From Microbotryomycetes sp. JL201 (taxonomy: Eukaryota > Basidiomycota > Microbotryomycetes), in the NCBI GenBank assembly GCA_033819885.1, contig JAQYUZ010000034.1, positions 62,001 through 126,000 of the forward strand: a stretch of DNA of 64,000 nt. Direction: 5' to 3'. Both the position numbers and the translations under genes were made by a program. The notes below the pieces were generated by a model. The model had not been told where the DNA came from. It did not search any database and saw only the letters and a list, made by a program, of their open reading frames with translations. Numbering within the stretch: position 1 is the stretch's first letter; every line of letters begins with the position of its first letter. This document shows, one piece after another, positions 54,945-64,000 of this stretch.

Positions 54945-56944
<2,000 letters not shown>

Positions 56945-57315: not shown

Positions 57316-60300
57316 ATGCTCTTGAATGTCAAGCGAGCATGTCTCGCCGCAGCAACTCGAACACGCTCTGCTGCGAATGTTCGTACGCTCGCTCGACTTG
57401 TCGTTCGCGCCGAAGACGATCGACGGACTTGGGAGAGACGAACTCCATTGACACCTACAGACGTCTCTCAGCTCGTCAAACAACACTCTCAAGATGGACT
57501 GCGAGTCTTGGTGGAAAACAGTGACAAGAGGTGTTTTGGAGCAAAGGCTTATCGAGAGGTGCGCTTCTCGTTCCGTCGGCTGTCGATAGCGAGTATTTCG
57601 CTGAACGTTTGATCGGCTCACGATTGTCACAGGCGGGAGCACAACTCATCAACACTTTAGAGAGCCAACCAACCGACTCTGAAGATGGCGACGTCGTTCT
57701 CGGCATCAAAGAAATTCCAATCTCTGCTTTGGAAGCTCAATCCACAACATCATCGCCGAAAACTTATGCATTCTTTTCACATACTCACAAAGGACAACCT
57801 TACAATTTAAAGTTGTTGCAAACGATGCTAGAGTCGAAAGCTTCGAGGTTCATTGACTGGGAACTTTTAACGGACGACAATGGTCAGAGGACGGCTGCTT
57901 TCGGTTGGCATGCAGGATTTGCTGGAATGGTTGATGGGTTGACGGGTTTGGGAACCAAGCTGCTGGCCAGGTTGGGCGTTGCAACTCCCCTGTTGGAGTT
58001 GAAGAGGCCACACCAAGTTGGAATGGGCGGAGTGGACGAAATCACATCAAGCTTGGAAGAATGTGGAAAGCGGTGGATGGAAGAGATGAAGGAGGATGGA
58101 AGTGGCGAAAGGATAGGTCCGATCGTGTTTGGAATCAATGGGACTGGCAGAGTTGGGAATGGAGCAAAGGCCGTGTTGGACCATCTCGGCGTCACTTGGA
58201 TCAAGAAACAAGAGCTAGAGTCGCTTGTCAAGGAGGGCGGTCAGTCAAACGCAGTGGAGTGACGCGAAACCTTTGCAGCTTACTTTCCCGTTACGCAAAG
58301 CAGAAGCCGACACGAGCAAGCTGTACGCTTGCCAGCTCACACTCAAAGACTGGATCAGACCTCGCGACACGTCCAAAACCTTCGACAGAGAAGAATACAG
58401 GCGACATCCCGAGCGGTTCGAATCGGTGTTTGCGTCAGAAGTCGCTCCTTTCTTGACTATGGTCCTCAATGGAGGCTTCTGGGAAACGGGATGTCCAAGA
58501 CTGTTGACCACTAAGGAGCTGGCGATTTTGCAACAGACTGTCCCAGCAAACAGGTTCTTATCGGTCGTCGACATTGGTTGCGACTGGAACGTACGCTTAC
58601 AAGGGAAGCCACATTCGAAACAATAGCTGACTTCGGACACAGGGATCGCTCGAGTTTGTGACCAGAGCGACGACCGTAAACGATCCTTTTTTACAAATCG
58701 ATGCTGCTACGGGCGAAATGAGTCGAGAGTAAGCATTTCGTTTGTTCAAATATAGTCACAGAACGGACTCACTTAGTCCTGGATCAGTCCGGCCTCTCCC
58801 CGGACGACACAAGTATCAGCAGTCGAGATATACCCTTCCACGCTTGCCGTCGATTCGTCTAAACATTTTTCGTCTTGCATCATGCCCTACGTCGACAGCC
58901 TTGTCAAAGATCCGACATGCTCTAACAATCAAGATCCGCTCGCTCGGGCCCTTAGAAGAGCAATCGTTGTTGAGAACGGACAGCTTGCCGAAAAGCATCA
59001 TTGGCTCCAGACTCTACTGAGCGAGGCAGACAAGCCAAAGCGAAAAGTAGTTCTCTTAGGCTCAGGGTGAGCGTGGGAGGGCTTGGTCACCGCCAAGTGA
59101 CAGGCCACGACTGACTTCGATTGCTCGAATCATCAGACTGGTGGCTGGTCCGGCTGTCAGAACGCTCGCAGCCCGTTCGGACCTCGACGTGGTAATTGGT
59201 AAGGAAAGAAGTGTCTGCTCCTGGCGTCGATGATTCTGATCAGGCGAGCTTATAGCGAGCAACGACATGCAAGCTGCTGAAAAGCTAGCAGCCGGCCATG
59301 ACAATGTCAGACCCGCGCCACTAGATGCAAATGATCAGACCGCTCTCGAGAACCTCATCGAGGGAGCTGATGTCGTATTGAGGTGAGCACGTTTCCGTTT
59401 TGGACGCGGTTCTGTACGCTGGACTGAGTATCGTGAATAGTCTCTTGCCTGCTCCGATGCACCCCGGTGTCGCCAAGCTCTGTATTCGTCATGGAGCCTC
59501 ATTGGTCACTGCTTCATATGTGTCAGAAGACATGAAGGCGTTACACTCTGAAGCAGAACGAGCAGGAGTCGTCTTGTTGAACGAGCTGGGCTTGGTCAGT
59601 CGAGTTCGTTCGTTTCGCGAGGTCATACTGAGCTCGAGTGAATAGGATCCCGGTATTGACCACGCATCGGCAATGCAACTCATCAAAGAGGCGCAATCGG
59701 CCGGTAATACAGTGCGGATGCTTCTGATCATCAACATCGGCGTTGTACTGACGAACCTTAATTAGATCGAGTCATTCGTGTCGTTCTGCGGCGGACTGCC
59801 CGCACCCGAAATCAGCAATGGGCCTCTCGGATACAAATTCTCGTCCGTCTGTGCATCGAGCTGTTGTTCGAATCGTCAGTCGCTGACACATTTGTTCCCA
59901 GCTGGTCACCTCGAGGAGTCTTGTCGGCAGCATTAAACGATGCCACATTCCGGCTCAATTCTCGACAAGTCTCTTTTCCCGGTACTCGACTGCTCAAGTC
60001 ACACTTTAGCTCCGTACCGATCCTGCGAGGCTTCTCGTTCGAAGGAGTCGCAAACCGAAACTCGCTCGGATATCTAGAGGAATATGGTTTGCCTAGCAAT
60101 CTGCCGACAATTTTACGAGGCAGTAAGTTGAGACACGATCGTGTTCTTTGAACCTTGTTCATTTGATACTCGGCAGCCCTGCGGTATCCTGGTTTCGCTC
60201 GGACTGTCGATATCTTCAAACGCATCGGCTTGCTCGATCAGGAGGCTCTTTCAAGGCCTCTGGAGAGATGGGACGAGCTCTTCGACTTGTGCTTGGCGCG

Positions 60301-61048
60301 CAAAGGCTGCAATATTGAGTCTGAACACGATCGAGTCGCCGCTATAACTCGCCTTGCTGGCTTGCAACCCGGTTCTGAGGCAACTGTAGAAGCCTTGTCA
60401 ACTCTGGTCCAGTCAGTTCAGGAGGGCATCTGTCTGCACCTTGCTCGGCTGATGCCTGCTTCCATGGCAGACTTGGCCTTTGTCCTGGATCACGCGACGA
60501 AAGCTTGAGTTTACCGACGGTCCCGAAATCCGCCGCCGCTCCATTAGACTTGCTGTCGACTCTTCTCGGGACTTCATTGGCGTACAAGGCTGGGGAGCGG
60601 GATGCCGTCATTCTGCACCACGAGTTGTCGACCAAAACAAAGAACAATCAGATAGAGCTGTTCACGTCGACTCTGGTTCAGGTGAGTGCTAACCTTGACA
60701 TGCCAACATAAATTGAACATATCTTGCTATGGACAGTACGGCGACAACGAGGCTTCTGCGATGGCAACCACCGTTGGAATTGTAAGTTGTATCTTGCAGG
60801 CCGACTTCGCAACGTCAGCTCACCGCGGCATGGTTTCACAGCCCATCGCATTGGGTGCTCTTCTGTTCCTGGATGGTCACATCACTTCACGAGGTCTAGT
60901 GTCACCGTCGTCACCTCAAGTGTGGCGACCATTGCTCGAGCAACTTGGCGAGCACGGCATCACGCTCGTCGAAAGGAGAAAGACAATTCAAGGCCCTGGG
61001 CAGAGCCTAGTGGACGTCTTGAAGGAGCAAGTGAAGGAGATTGAGTAA
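57316..61048 (+). CDS. AASS: Bifunctional alpha-aminoadipate semialdehyde synthase (LKR/SDH, AASS type)
   Basis: Fuses lysine-2-oxoglutarate reductase to saccharopine dehydrogenase, the two first steps of mitochondrial lysine breakdown in animals and plants. The start [20 protein letters not shown] is Arg/Ala-rich and acid-free: a mitochondrial presequence. LKR half: [72 protein letters not shown]. Linker: [56 protein letters not shown] half: [20 protein letters not shown] (dinucleotide fold), [86 protein letters not shown] and [20 protein letters not shown]. Stop at 61046-61048. About eleven introns; about 950 residues, as in AASS. The domain order matches the animal/plant enzyme, not fungal LYS1, LYS9 or SPE3-LYS9. 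Confidence 0.9.
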
Positions 61049-61663: not shown

Positions 61664-64000
61664 ATGTCGACCGTCTCCCGAGTCGCGCTTGGCGCGTTCG
61701 CAGCAGGAGTAATCGTTGCTTTCGAGCCTTTGAAAGCCTGGCTGACGTCTTACACGTCGCATTCGTCGGCGAGTGCCGGATGGATCTTGGCCTTCGCGTG
61801 CTGGTTGGCGATCGCTCTCACATTCGCGTCACAATTGTCAACGGCATGTCTTTTTGCATGGAACTGCTTCTTCAAACCATTGGGCAAGTCTGCCAACCAG
61901 CAAGGCAGACTTGACGCGTTCTACCAAGGTCAAGCTCAAATCTACGACCGAACGAGGTCAAAGCTGCTACGAGGACGTTCGACCATGCTCAAGCTGTCGG
62001 CTGCTCACTTGGCTCAGCAACGTCAAGAGAATCCTGACAAACGACTTGTGTGGCTCGACATTGGTGGTGGAACCGGTGAGCTTTGCAGAACTACTCTCTG
62101 TCACGAGCACGTGTGCTGAGCTCGGGCCCCACACGTATCTTCAGGTTGGAATGTGGAAGAGATGGACAAGGTGAGTGGTAGTTGCAAGATTGGCGGGAAA
62201 CCGCTAAGACTGCTCAATATAGTACTTTCCCGTTGCGGATTTTGATGGTAAGCAGAGTGTATGTGGTCACGTGATTGAAAGCCCACGTGTCGATTCGCTC
62301 CTGTTCAGCTGTTTACGTCCTGGACTTGTGCGAGCCTCTCCTTGACGTCGCCAGGAAGCGCTTCGAGGCTCGAGGATGGAAGAATGTCCACTGTCTGCTG
62401 CAAGATGCCACGGCTTTTGTCTTGCCAGAATGGGAAGAGGAAGGCATCGACCCGGAGGGCGACCTAGACTTTGTCTCGATGTCATACTCGCTCAGGCAAG
62501 TCCTTCAGGCTACATTACTACACGGTGTGCTGATATATGCTGCAGCATGATGCCTGATATGCTCAAGCTTATCGACCGCATCGAAAGATTCCTGAGCCCG
62601 TCCGGTTTGCTCTCCGTCTGCGATTTTTACGTATCATCTCGAGAGAAATCAACTTTGGCTGAAGTGATAGGCGACACGGCCTCGCGTCACTGCTCTTGGT
62701 TGTCGCGCATGTTCTGGCTGCACTGGTGAGCACGCCTAAGCTTGTCTCGGAGGCGGACATTGAAAGACAAGTCATGCCTCAGGTTCGAATTCGATCACGT
62801 GGATCTTCATCCGTCTCGCCGTCAGTACTTGGAACATACATTTGCTACCATCAAGTCTTTCAATGGCCGGTAAGCCCGATCAAAAGTGGCATCTTTTCTT
62901 AGGCTGACGAATGATCGCATGGAGCAGTAACAACTTTGTCGTGCCATGGTTGATCCGGATGTGAGAGGGCTGTATGTCTTTGGTCTGTGACATGGATCTG
63001 ATTGAACCCTGTCTCTGAAAGCCCGTACTACGTCAACCTTATGACTTCGCGCCGAGCCGATACCAGCAACGCTCGCACAGCATTCGAAGTCGACGCCGGC
63101 AATACAATCTCTGCCACGGCTTCACCAATACTTGTACCAGCTCGCAACCCTTCGTCTCTCGACTTGCCCGCCTTGACTCTCGGACTGTCTTCGCTGCAAA
63201 GATCCAGCTCGACTCGGTCGCGCAAGCTGCGACGAACCATTTCGTACGAATCCGACAGTACACGCATCGACATTGCCCCTGAAGAGCAATTGTCGTCGTT
63301 CCACTACGGTCGTCGTCACTTTCGGGTTCCATACCTCGATTCGCCGGTGCACAAAGAGTTTCGCACATGGGTGTATGGCTTCACTTGGGAGGACCCCGCA
63401 GTCGACATGCAGCATTTGAATTTGACGAGCGAAGACCACATGCTTTGTATTTCCTCGGCTGGCGACAATGCCCTGCACTGTGAGTTCTGTCAAGTTTTTC
63501 AGGATCTCGCCGACTGACTTGGTCACGGACGACAGACGCGGTTGATGGTCCCAAAGGGCAACAGCCCAAGCGGATTCATGCCGTCGACATGAATCCTTGG
63601 TGCGTAAACCATCTGCTGACTTTCGAGAACTCTGCTGAATCGCAATCAAAGCCAAGGACACTTGCTGGAATTGAAACTAGCTTCGATTTGCGCCCTGGAC
63701 TACGAGGACCATTGGAAGGTCAGAAGTGCGCCCAATTCCACACACTATAAATCGGCTGAATCTCTTGCCATAGCTCTTTGGTGAAGGCCGTCATGAAAAT
63801 TTCCGCGCTCTTCTCGACACAAAGCTTTCGCCGTATCTGACGTCTCATGCATATCAATTCTGGAGGTACGTCAGCGCGCTTCTTTTGAGCAATCGCATCA
63901 GGCGATTCTGACGCATATGCTTCGTCACTGTGTGCAGGAAAAACGACAATGCTTTCTCTTCGGCATTCTACCTTCGTGGCTACTCTGGCTGGGCTCTTCG
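61664..64000 (+). CDS. BTA1: Betaine-lipid (DGTS) synthase BTA1, 3'-truncated by window edge
   Basis: Makes the phosphorus-free lipid diacylglyceryl-trimethylhomoserine from diacylglycerol and SAM; ER membrane. Start MSTVSRVALGAFAAGVIVAF with two hydrophobic segments (also GWILAFACWLAIALTF). The N-terminal BtaB-like methyltransferase has RLVWLDIGGGTG (SAM motif I), AVYVLDLCEPLLDVARKRFE, LDFVSMSYSLR and FLSPSGLLSVCDFYVSS. The C-terminal BtaA-like 3-amino-3-carboxypropyl transferase has SSFHYGRRHFRVPYLDSPVH, FTWEDPAVDMQHLNLTSEDH, MLCISSAGDNALHY, KRIHAVDMNPCQGHLLELKL, ASICALDYEDHWKLFGEG and SPYLTSHAYQFWRKN; the reading continues past 64000. The BtaB-then-BtaA order is the fungal arrangement, the reverse of the Chlamydomonas enzyme. 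About eight introns so far. Confidence 0.92.
62268..62289. promoter_or_regulatory. Pair of CACGTG boxes inside a BTA1 intron
   Basis: CACGTG at 62268-62273 and 62284-62289, in the short intron region before the AVYVLDLCEP exon. Could be regulatory or chance. Confidence 0.3.

What the first reader, a model, noticed from the sequence alone, without database searches (positions are those of the whole stretch)
57316..61048. Animal/plant-style fused LKR/SDH (AASS) in a fungal genome
Seen: one spliced gene carries a lysine-2-oxoglutarate reductase half, the AASS linker ([26 protein letters not shown]) and a full saccharopine dehydrogenase half, with an Arg-rich N-terminus that looks like a mitochondrial presequence. 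Known: fungi make lysine with separate enzymes LYS1 and LYS9, and basidiomycetes such as Cryptococcus fuse LYS9 to SPE3. Inference: this species may break lysine down in mitochondria by the animal/plant route, separate from its cytosolic biosynthetic enzymes. Either an old gene kept in few fungi or a transfer.
Basis: partly seen in the sequence, partly recalled or inferred. Interest (0 to 1): 0.75.

Follow-up and report, generated by a model that had tools for sequence, protein, structure and literature searches.

The report
Fungal mitochondrial-type lysine-breakdown enzyme (AASS)
The gene is a real, intact fused lysine-breakdown enzyme like the one in animals, but it is an old enzyme that many mushrooms, rusts, moulds and aquatic fungi share, so it is neither a rarity nor a borrowed gene, although several papers still say that fungi keep the two parts as separate genes.

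Summary
Confirmed: 57316-61048 (+) is one 15-exon gene (14 GT-AG introns, 968 aa) with a full LKR/LOR half fused to a full saccharopine dehydrogenase half, colinear with human AASS. My splice model equals the deposited hypothetical protein OIV83_004779 of Microbotryomycetes sp. JL201. The same genome has separate LYS1 and SPE3-LYS9, and ALDH7A1-like and DHTKD1-like genes; the N-terminus is presequence-like. A mitochondrial catabolic route beside a biosynthetic one is the best reading (inferred). But 'few fungi or a transfer' is not borne out: three searches gave 276 relatives, 244 of them counted as fungal, from Rozella, chytrids and Mucoromycota to Agaricomycetes, Tremellomycetes and rusts; among listed rows I saw no ascomycete. 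Full-length and SDH trees largely follow fungal taxonomy; Microbotryomycetes with fish is rejected (p-AU 0.001). The LOR half rooted on distant LYS1 is ambiguous. So: most likely an ancestral fungal AASS. Several database entries already bear that name; what may deserve print is that four papers seen here state or imply that fungi have only separate genes.

The parts
57316..61048 (+). AASS (LKR/SDH) gene, 15 exons: 57316-57558, 57633-58239, 58304-58590, 58643-58728, 58788-59066, 59137-59198, 59256-59382, 59441-59594, 59646-59711, 59766-59842, 59902-60122, 60177-60411, 60471-60681, 60737-60781, 60842-61048; 968 aa
   Evidence: all 14 introns GT-AG; translation identical to P0001 = OIV83_004779
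57316..57405 (+). N-terminal 30 residues, presequence-like (6 R/K, 0 D/E)
   Evidence: localisation inferred, no TargetP available
57403..59031 (+). LKR/LOR half and linker (introns included); counterparts of human R39, K93, H111, K114, Q116, R146 and D358 are R42, K107, H131, K134, Q136, R167 and D377 of the 968-aa protein
   Evidence: Pfam AlaDh_PNT_N; human LOR 8dda 1e-60; residues; half boundaries approximate
59032..61048 (+). Saccharopine dehydrogenase half (introns included), with Rossmann GSG motif and ASN cofactor loop
   Evidence: Pfam Sacchrp_dh_NADP and Sacchrp_dh_C; human SDH 5l78 3.4e-83; cofactor loop; half boundaries approximate

Best explanation
The gene encodes a bifunctional alpha-aminoadipic semialdehyde synthase that was most likely inherited vertically from the common ancestor of living fungi or earlier. 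Most likely the protein is imported into mitochondria; its LOR half condenses lysine with 2-oxoglutarate to saccharopine, and its SDH half oxidises saccharopine to glutamate and aminoadipate semialdehyde, which an ALDH7A1-type dehydrogenase (presequence-like N-terminus, same genome) turns into 2-aminoadipate, and a DHTKD1-type dehydrogenase acts further down. LYS1 and SPE3-LYS9, whose N-termini do not look like presequences, run the opposite reactions in lysine synthesis outside the mitochondrion. Shown: gene, fusion, active-site residues, coexistence with LYS1 and SPE3-LYS9, wide spread in fungi, tree of the SDH half and of the full length. Inferred: import, direction, substrates and physiological role.
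For: Gene model identical to the deposited protein; both halves colinear with human AASS. Residues that structural work on human LOR names as catalytic, substrate-binding or latch (PMC13174811, passages) are present here and, among 276 relatives, kept in: R39 274, K93 275, H111 275, K114 275, Q116 249, R146 273, D358 271. Own LYS1 matches yeast LYS1 at 7.9e-114 against 5.1e-8 for human LOR; the own LYS9 part matches the Magnaporthe enzyme at 5.5e-176 against 2.1e-89 for human SDH, and its start shares one open frame with the end of spermidine synthase. ALDH7A1-like gene with R/K-rich N-terminus, best PDB hit ALDH7A1 3.7e-112, first hit of another name 1.3e-94. DHTKD1-like C-terminal exon, 2.3e-23 against 1.7e-19 for the best OGDH, and a second locus that is OGDH-like, 1.2e-21 against 8.3e-6 for DHTKD1. 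Presequence-like N-termini: 273 of 276 rows have the WERR-type anchor; 256 of these a 12-90 residue extension, of which 250 have at most one acid and 239 at least 3 R/K and an excess over D/E above 2. The Arg of the LYS9 cofactor loop (ACR, 3 of 3 LYS9 examined) is Arg in 0 of the 273 AASS rows with a letter there, 3 of 276 being gaps. Trees: fungi against non-fungi 96 SH-aLRT in full length, Basidiomycota 100, Pucciniomycotina 99; SDH half rooted on LYS9: Basidiomycota 99, fungi 87; Microbotryomycetes plus fish as one clade rejected, p-AU 0.001.
Against: No expression, localisation or enzyme data. Ser266/Arg267, named for NADPH choice in human LOR, are not kept: of 244 fungal rows, the 12 letters listed for the Arg column cover 242 and hold no Arg, and the ten commonest of the Ser column cover 214 and hold no Ser, in a loosely aligned stretch; so cofactor and drive of the LOR half cannot be read across. 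Fungal monophyly in the SDH tree has support 87, below the tool's star, 'not shown, not rejected'. The LOR half rooted on LYS1 puts the root among Basidiomycota; LYS1 is very distant (2.58 changes per column on each side of the root), and fungi as one clade is not rejected there (p-AU 0.302), nor shown. Zoopagomycota are not one clade in any of the three trees, Mucoromycota have support 57 in full length, and one chytrid stands apart in the SDH tree. Trees are of the quick kind; non-fungal sampling is 4 fish, 1 plant, 1 amoebozoan and 3 unnamed rows. Glutaryl-CoA dehydrogenase was not identified among 16 acyl-CoA dehydrogenase stretches, read by eye. The DHTKD1 call rests on one exon.
Confidence: 0.85

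Rival explanations
1. Horizontal transfer of AASS from an animal, plant or protist into this or a few fungal lineages.
For: A fused AASS in a fungus is unexpected if the literature statements are taken at face value. The LOR half rooted on LYS1 does not give fungi as one clade.
Against: 244 of 276 fetched relatives are counted as fungal, from many phyla (list); full-length and SDH trees largely follow fungal taxonomy; Microbotryomycetes plus fish rejected. Plant or protist sources were not tested by AU, and animals are represented by fish only.
Confidence: 0.04
2. The enzyme is a second, mitochondrial route of lysine synthesis, or a shunt to pipecolate or other precursors, rather than mainly catabolic.
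For: The reactions are reversible in principle; lysine-derived intermediates feed secondary metabolism in fungi (PMC9854754, passages); the human NADPH residues of LOR are not conserved.
Against: The SDH cofactor loop lacks the LYS9 Arg in all 273 rows with a letter there, which I take to fit NAD-linked oxidation; LYS1 and SPE3-LYS9 are present for synthesis; ALDH7A1-like and DHTKD1-like genes coexist.
Confidence: 0.08
3. Two separate transcripts, or LKR and SDH as separate proteins.
For: Plants and mouse also make monofunctional SDH mRNA (PMC3017810, passage).
Against: One continuous spliced frame without internal stop; relatives from other assemblies have similar length, median 973 aa, range 730-1460, over 276 rows. 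No RNA data were available.
Confidence: 0.03

Closest known systems
Animal AASS (human alpha-aminoadipic semialdehyde synthase, PDB 8dda LOR, 5l78 SDH)
   Same: order and extent of both halves, catalytic residues; mitochondrial by name in the PDB entries
   Different: 31-34% identity to fish AASS; Ser266/Arg267 of human LOR not kept
Fungal AASS already in databases (e.g. P0017 Cryptococcus deuterogattii, P0050 Kickxella alabastrina, P0175 Hypsizygus marmoreus, P0103 Rhizophagus irregularis, each named alpha-aminoadipic semialdehyde synthase by a source)
   Same: same fused architecture; P0017 and P0103 fall in the same fungal part of the tree
   Different: lineage divergence only: 38% identity to P0017, 79% to the nearest other species, P0002
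Plant LKR/SDH (P0037)
   Same: both halves fused
   Different: P0037 has no presequence-like extension and is a long branch
LYS1 plus SPE3-LYS9 of the same genome
   Same: homologous catalytic domains
   Different: separate genes, N-termini not presequence-like, LYS9 with the ACR loop

Membership tests
AASS (bifunctional LKR/SDH) | LOR/LKR half N-terminal to a full SDH half in one reading frame | tested here: met
AASS (bifunctional LKR/SDH) | LOR residues K93, H111, K114, Q116, R39, R146, D358 (human numbering) | tested here: met
AASS (bifunctional LKR/SDH) | SDH half groups with AASS, not with LYS9 | tested here: met
   the three LYS9 form one side (100), all 71 AASS rows the other
AASS (bifunctional LKR/SDH) | LOR half groups with AASS, not with LYS1 | tested here: inconclusive
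   the two LYS1 are one side (100), but the root then falls among Basidiomycota; fungi as one clade not rejected, p-AU 0.302
AASS (bifunctional LKR/SDH) | NADPH-binding Ser266/Arg267 of human LOR | tested here: not met
   the plant row (S, C) and the Phypoly row (T, S) do not keep the pair either, so I do not treat it as defining the whole family
AASS (bifunctional LKR/SDH) | SDH cofactor loop without the LYS9 Arg | tested here: met
   Asn here; Arg in 0 of 273 rows with a letter; that the position chooses NAD over NADP is inferred
AASS, mitochondrial type | mitochondrial import | not testable with these tools
   composition only: 6 R/K, 0 D/E in 30 residues; hydrophobic moment 0.54
AASS (bifunctional LKR/SDH) | both enzyme activities | not testable with these tools
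   needs assay

The most novel reading that the evidence does not exclude
The last common ancestor of fungi ran two saccharopine routes in opposite directions, a mitochondrial catabolic AASS and a separate LYS1/LYS9 biosynthetic pair; many fungal lineages still do, and Ascomycota lost the catabolic one. The printed rule that fungi use the saccharopine enzymes for synthesis only, from separate genes, is then an ascomycete-based error.
Probability: 0.65. Interest if true: 0.5.

Novelty: new member of a known kind. Interest (0 to 1): 0.36.

Why it matters
The gene itself is an ordinary member of AASS. Its spread matters more: it would make fungi outside the Ascomycota, including yeasts related to Rhodotorula, usable models for an enzyme that is defective in hyperlysinemia (PMC3626681, start of abstract in a listing) and is proposed as a drug target for glutaric aciduria type 1 (PMC9490328, start of abstract and passages), and it corrects a statement found in several papers. 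It also raises a testable question: how a cell keeps the same two reactions running in opposite directions in two compartments.

Tried and rejected
Grouping with animal AASS was tested and rejected for the SDH half (Microbotryomycetes plus fish); plant and protist sources were not tested so. Reading NADPH use of the LOR half from the human residues led nowhere. Rooting the LOR half on LYS1 gave a root among Basidiomycota; I treat it as a long-branch effect because the AU test does not reject fungal monophyly (p 0.302), and the tree without LYS1 gives Basidiomycota 100 and non-fungi 98. NCBIfam gave no match of use for P0001 (two weak ones far below cut-off). Glutaryl-CoA dehydrogenase remained unresolved. 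Pfam scans of two partial neighbour ORFs gave no hit. Absence in Ascomycota was not tested directly: I saw no ascomycete name in the listed rows, but only 120 of 446 hits and 120 of 292 were listed, about 8000 candidates per search were scored, and no other fungal genome could be searched whole. No structure prediction was run.

Full report
What is there. The window is C28:62001-126000 of a 17.15-Mb, 92-contig assembly. A protein search returned hypothetical protein OIV83_004779 of Microbotryomycetes sp. JL201 on a contig of 192794 bases, the length of C28; the species is Basidiomycota, Pucciniomycotina, Microbotryomycetes. The gene at 57316-61048 on the + strand has 15 exons and 14 GT-AG introns; its 968-aa translation is identical to that record. 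My first hand model had 973 aa and two other acceptors; searches used it.

Both halves are real. Pfam finds AlaDh_PNT_N, Sacchrp_dh_NADP and Sacchrp_dh_C. Human AASS structures match both halves in order, LOR at 1e-60 and SDH at 3.4e-83. Yeast LYS1 matches only residues of the N-terminal lobe at about 1e-13; yeast and Magnaporthe LYS9 match the SDH half nearly as well as human SDH does (2.2e-77 and 3.6e-75), as homologues would. The residues named for human LOR in PMC13174811 (passages) have counterparts here and in nearly all of 276 relatives, Q116 being the most variable, 249 of 276.

The rest of the genome. PF16653 gave 5 stretches at two places: this gene on C28, and C23. On C23 the end of spermidine synthase runs into saccharopine reductase in one open frame; the best match is the Magnaporthe saccharopine reductase at 5.5e-176. 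PF05222 gave 3 stretches, at this gene and on C1; the C1 gene is LYS1, yeast LYS1 at 7.9e-114. An ALDH7A1-like gene lies on C67 (3.7e-112) and a DHTKD1-like C-terminal exon on C13 (2.3e-23 against 1.7e-19 for the best OGDH chain), with an OGDH-like locus on C16. None of these is on C28, so there is no gene cluster. Glutaryl-CoA dehydrogenase was not identified among 16 PF00441 stretches.

Localisation. The first 30 residues hold 6 R/K and no acid. The largest 18-residue hydrophobic moment in the first 35 residues is 0.54, against 0.43 for the ALDH7A1-like gene, 0.20 for LYS1 and 0.27 for SPE3-LYS9 (the last two starts were joined by eye). Of 276 relatives, 273 have the anchor; 256 of them have a 12-90 residue extension, 250 of these with at most one acid and 239 clearly basic; 7 rows have a shorter one (the plant, two unnamed JGI rows and four fungal rows) and 10 a longer one. 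This fits mitochondrial import but is no proof; these counts include the fish.

Direction. In LYS9 the loop after the second strand reads ACR in the three sequences compared; here it reads ASN, and Arg is found in 0 of 273 rows with a letter there (3 gaps). That this position reads NAD against NADP is my inference. In the LOR half the human NADPH residues Ser266/Arg267 are not kept in fungi, so I draw nothing from them.

Spread. Three searches listed 44, 120 (of 446) and 120 (of 292) rows, 276 distinct proteins; 275 have the LOR lysine K93 and 274 the GSG of the SDH half. I count 244 as fungal after setting aside 14 fish rows, one plant, 4 protist or unnamed rows and 13 further unnamed metagenome rows (list; one of the 244, P0004, has its organism name cut off). 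They span Rozella, Chytridiomycota, Blastocladiomycota, Zoopagomycota, Mucoromycota with Mortierella and Rhizophagus, Pucciniomycotina, Tremellomycetes and many Agaricomycetes; the assignment of genera to phyla is from memory. Reading the lists I saw no Ascomycota and no Ustilaginomycotina, which is weak evidence of absence.

Trees. I chose 71 of the 276 by hand to cover groups (62 fungal, 9 not); all trees are IQ-TREE 'quick' with SH-aLRT. Full length, 916 columns: fungi against non-fungi 96, Basidiomycota 100, Pucciniomycotina 99, Agaricomycotina 99, chytrids 99; Mucoromycota only 57, Zoopagomycota split. SDH half rooted on three LYS9: fungi 87 (not starred), Basidiomycota 99, own LYS9 with the other LYS9; one chytrid and one zoopagomycete stand apart, and fish, plant and protist rows branch one after another. 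Forcing Microbotryomycetes with fish costs 74 log units, p-AU 0.001. The LOR half rooted on two LYS1 put the root among Basidiomycota, against my reading; holding all fungi together costs 8.6 log units, p-AU 0.302; without LYS1, Basidiomycota 100 and non-fungi 98.

Literature. PMC7253579 (passages) says the saccharopine route of lysine catabolism is widespread 'except for fungi'. PMC3017810 (passage) and PMC4303824 (passages) say that in fungi the two activities have separate genes. PMC9490328 (passages) lists animals, Dictyostelium and plants for the fused form and names S. cerevisiae for synthesis. PMC9854754 (passages and a reference title) does describe lysine catabolism in fungi by reversal of the last two steps, and saccharopine formation by a lysine 2-ketoglutarate reductase in Penicillium. 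PMC8779187 (term search) and PMC10051792 (the SPE3-LYS9 fusion; term search) do not contain the words AASS or bifunctional; PMC4339202 and PMC3287585 (term searches) do not contain AASS. No paper describing fungal fused AASS turned up in paper searches (13, 14 and 28 found nothing; others listed only part of their hits; most papers were seen as listings), all in an open-licence library. The 2012 FEBS Letters study of bacterial LKR and SDH, cited, was not seen.

Verdict. It is an ordinary, most likely ancestral AASS whose breadth in fungi contradicts several papers.

Noticed in passing
P0018, P0019, P0020, P0022, P0025, P0026, P0027, P0044: These 8 of 276 rows (six named rusts, two unnamed) have Lys where most AASS have Asn and LYS9 has Arg in the SDH cofactor loop; the SDH of rusts might have shifted cofactor.
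   Followed up: no
window 61664-62119 (+): The next gene downstream begins MSTVSRVALG and contains FYQGQAQIYDRTRSKLLRGR and WLDIGGGTG; from memory it resembles the betaine-lipid synthase BTA1. Pfam gave nothing on this partial exon.
   Followed up: partly
window 55954-56720 (+): The upstream gene looks like the C-terminal part of a MAP kinase (from memory, Hog1-like); Pfam gave nothing on the last fragment, 56304-56720.
   Followed up: partly
G000:C21:33361-33729 (-) and C21:185124-185492 (+): Two acyl-CoA dehydrogenase fragments with the same score and the same 125-aa frame lie in opposite orientation on one contig: a large inverted duplication or an assembly effect.
   Followed up: no
P0007 (1288 aa), P0067 (1460 aa), P0152 (1205 aa), P0116 (1211 aa): AASS records with extra Pfam domains (methyltransferase PF13649, PF00026, PF00089, PF00078); probably neighbour genes merged by annotation.
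   Followed up: no
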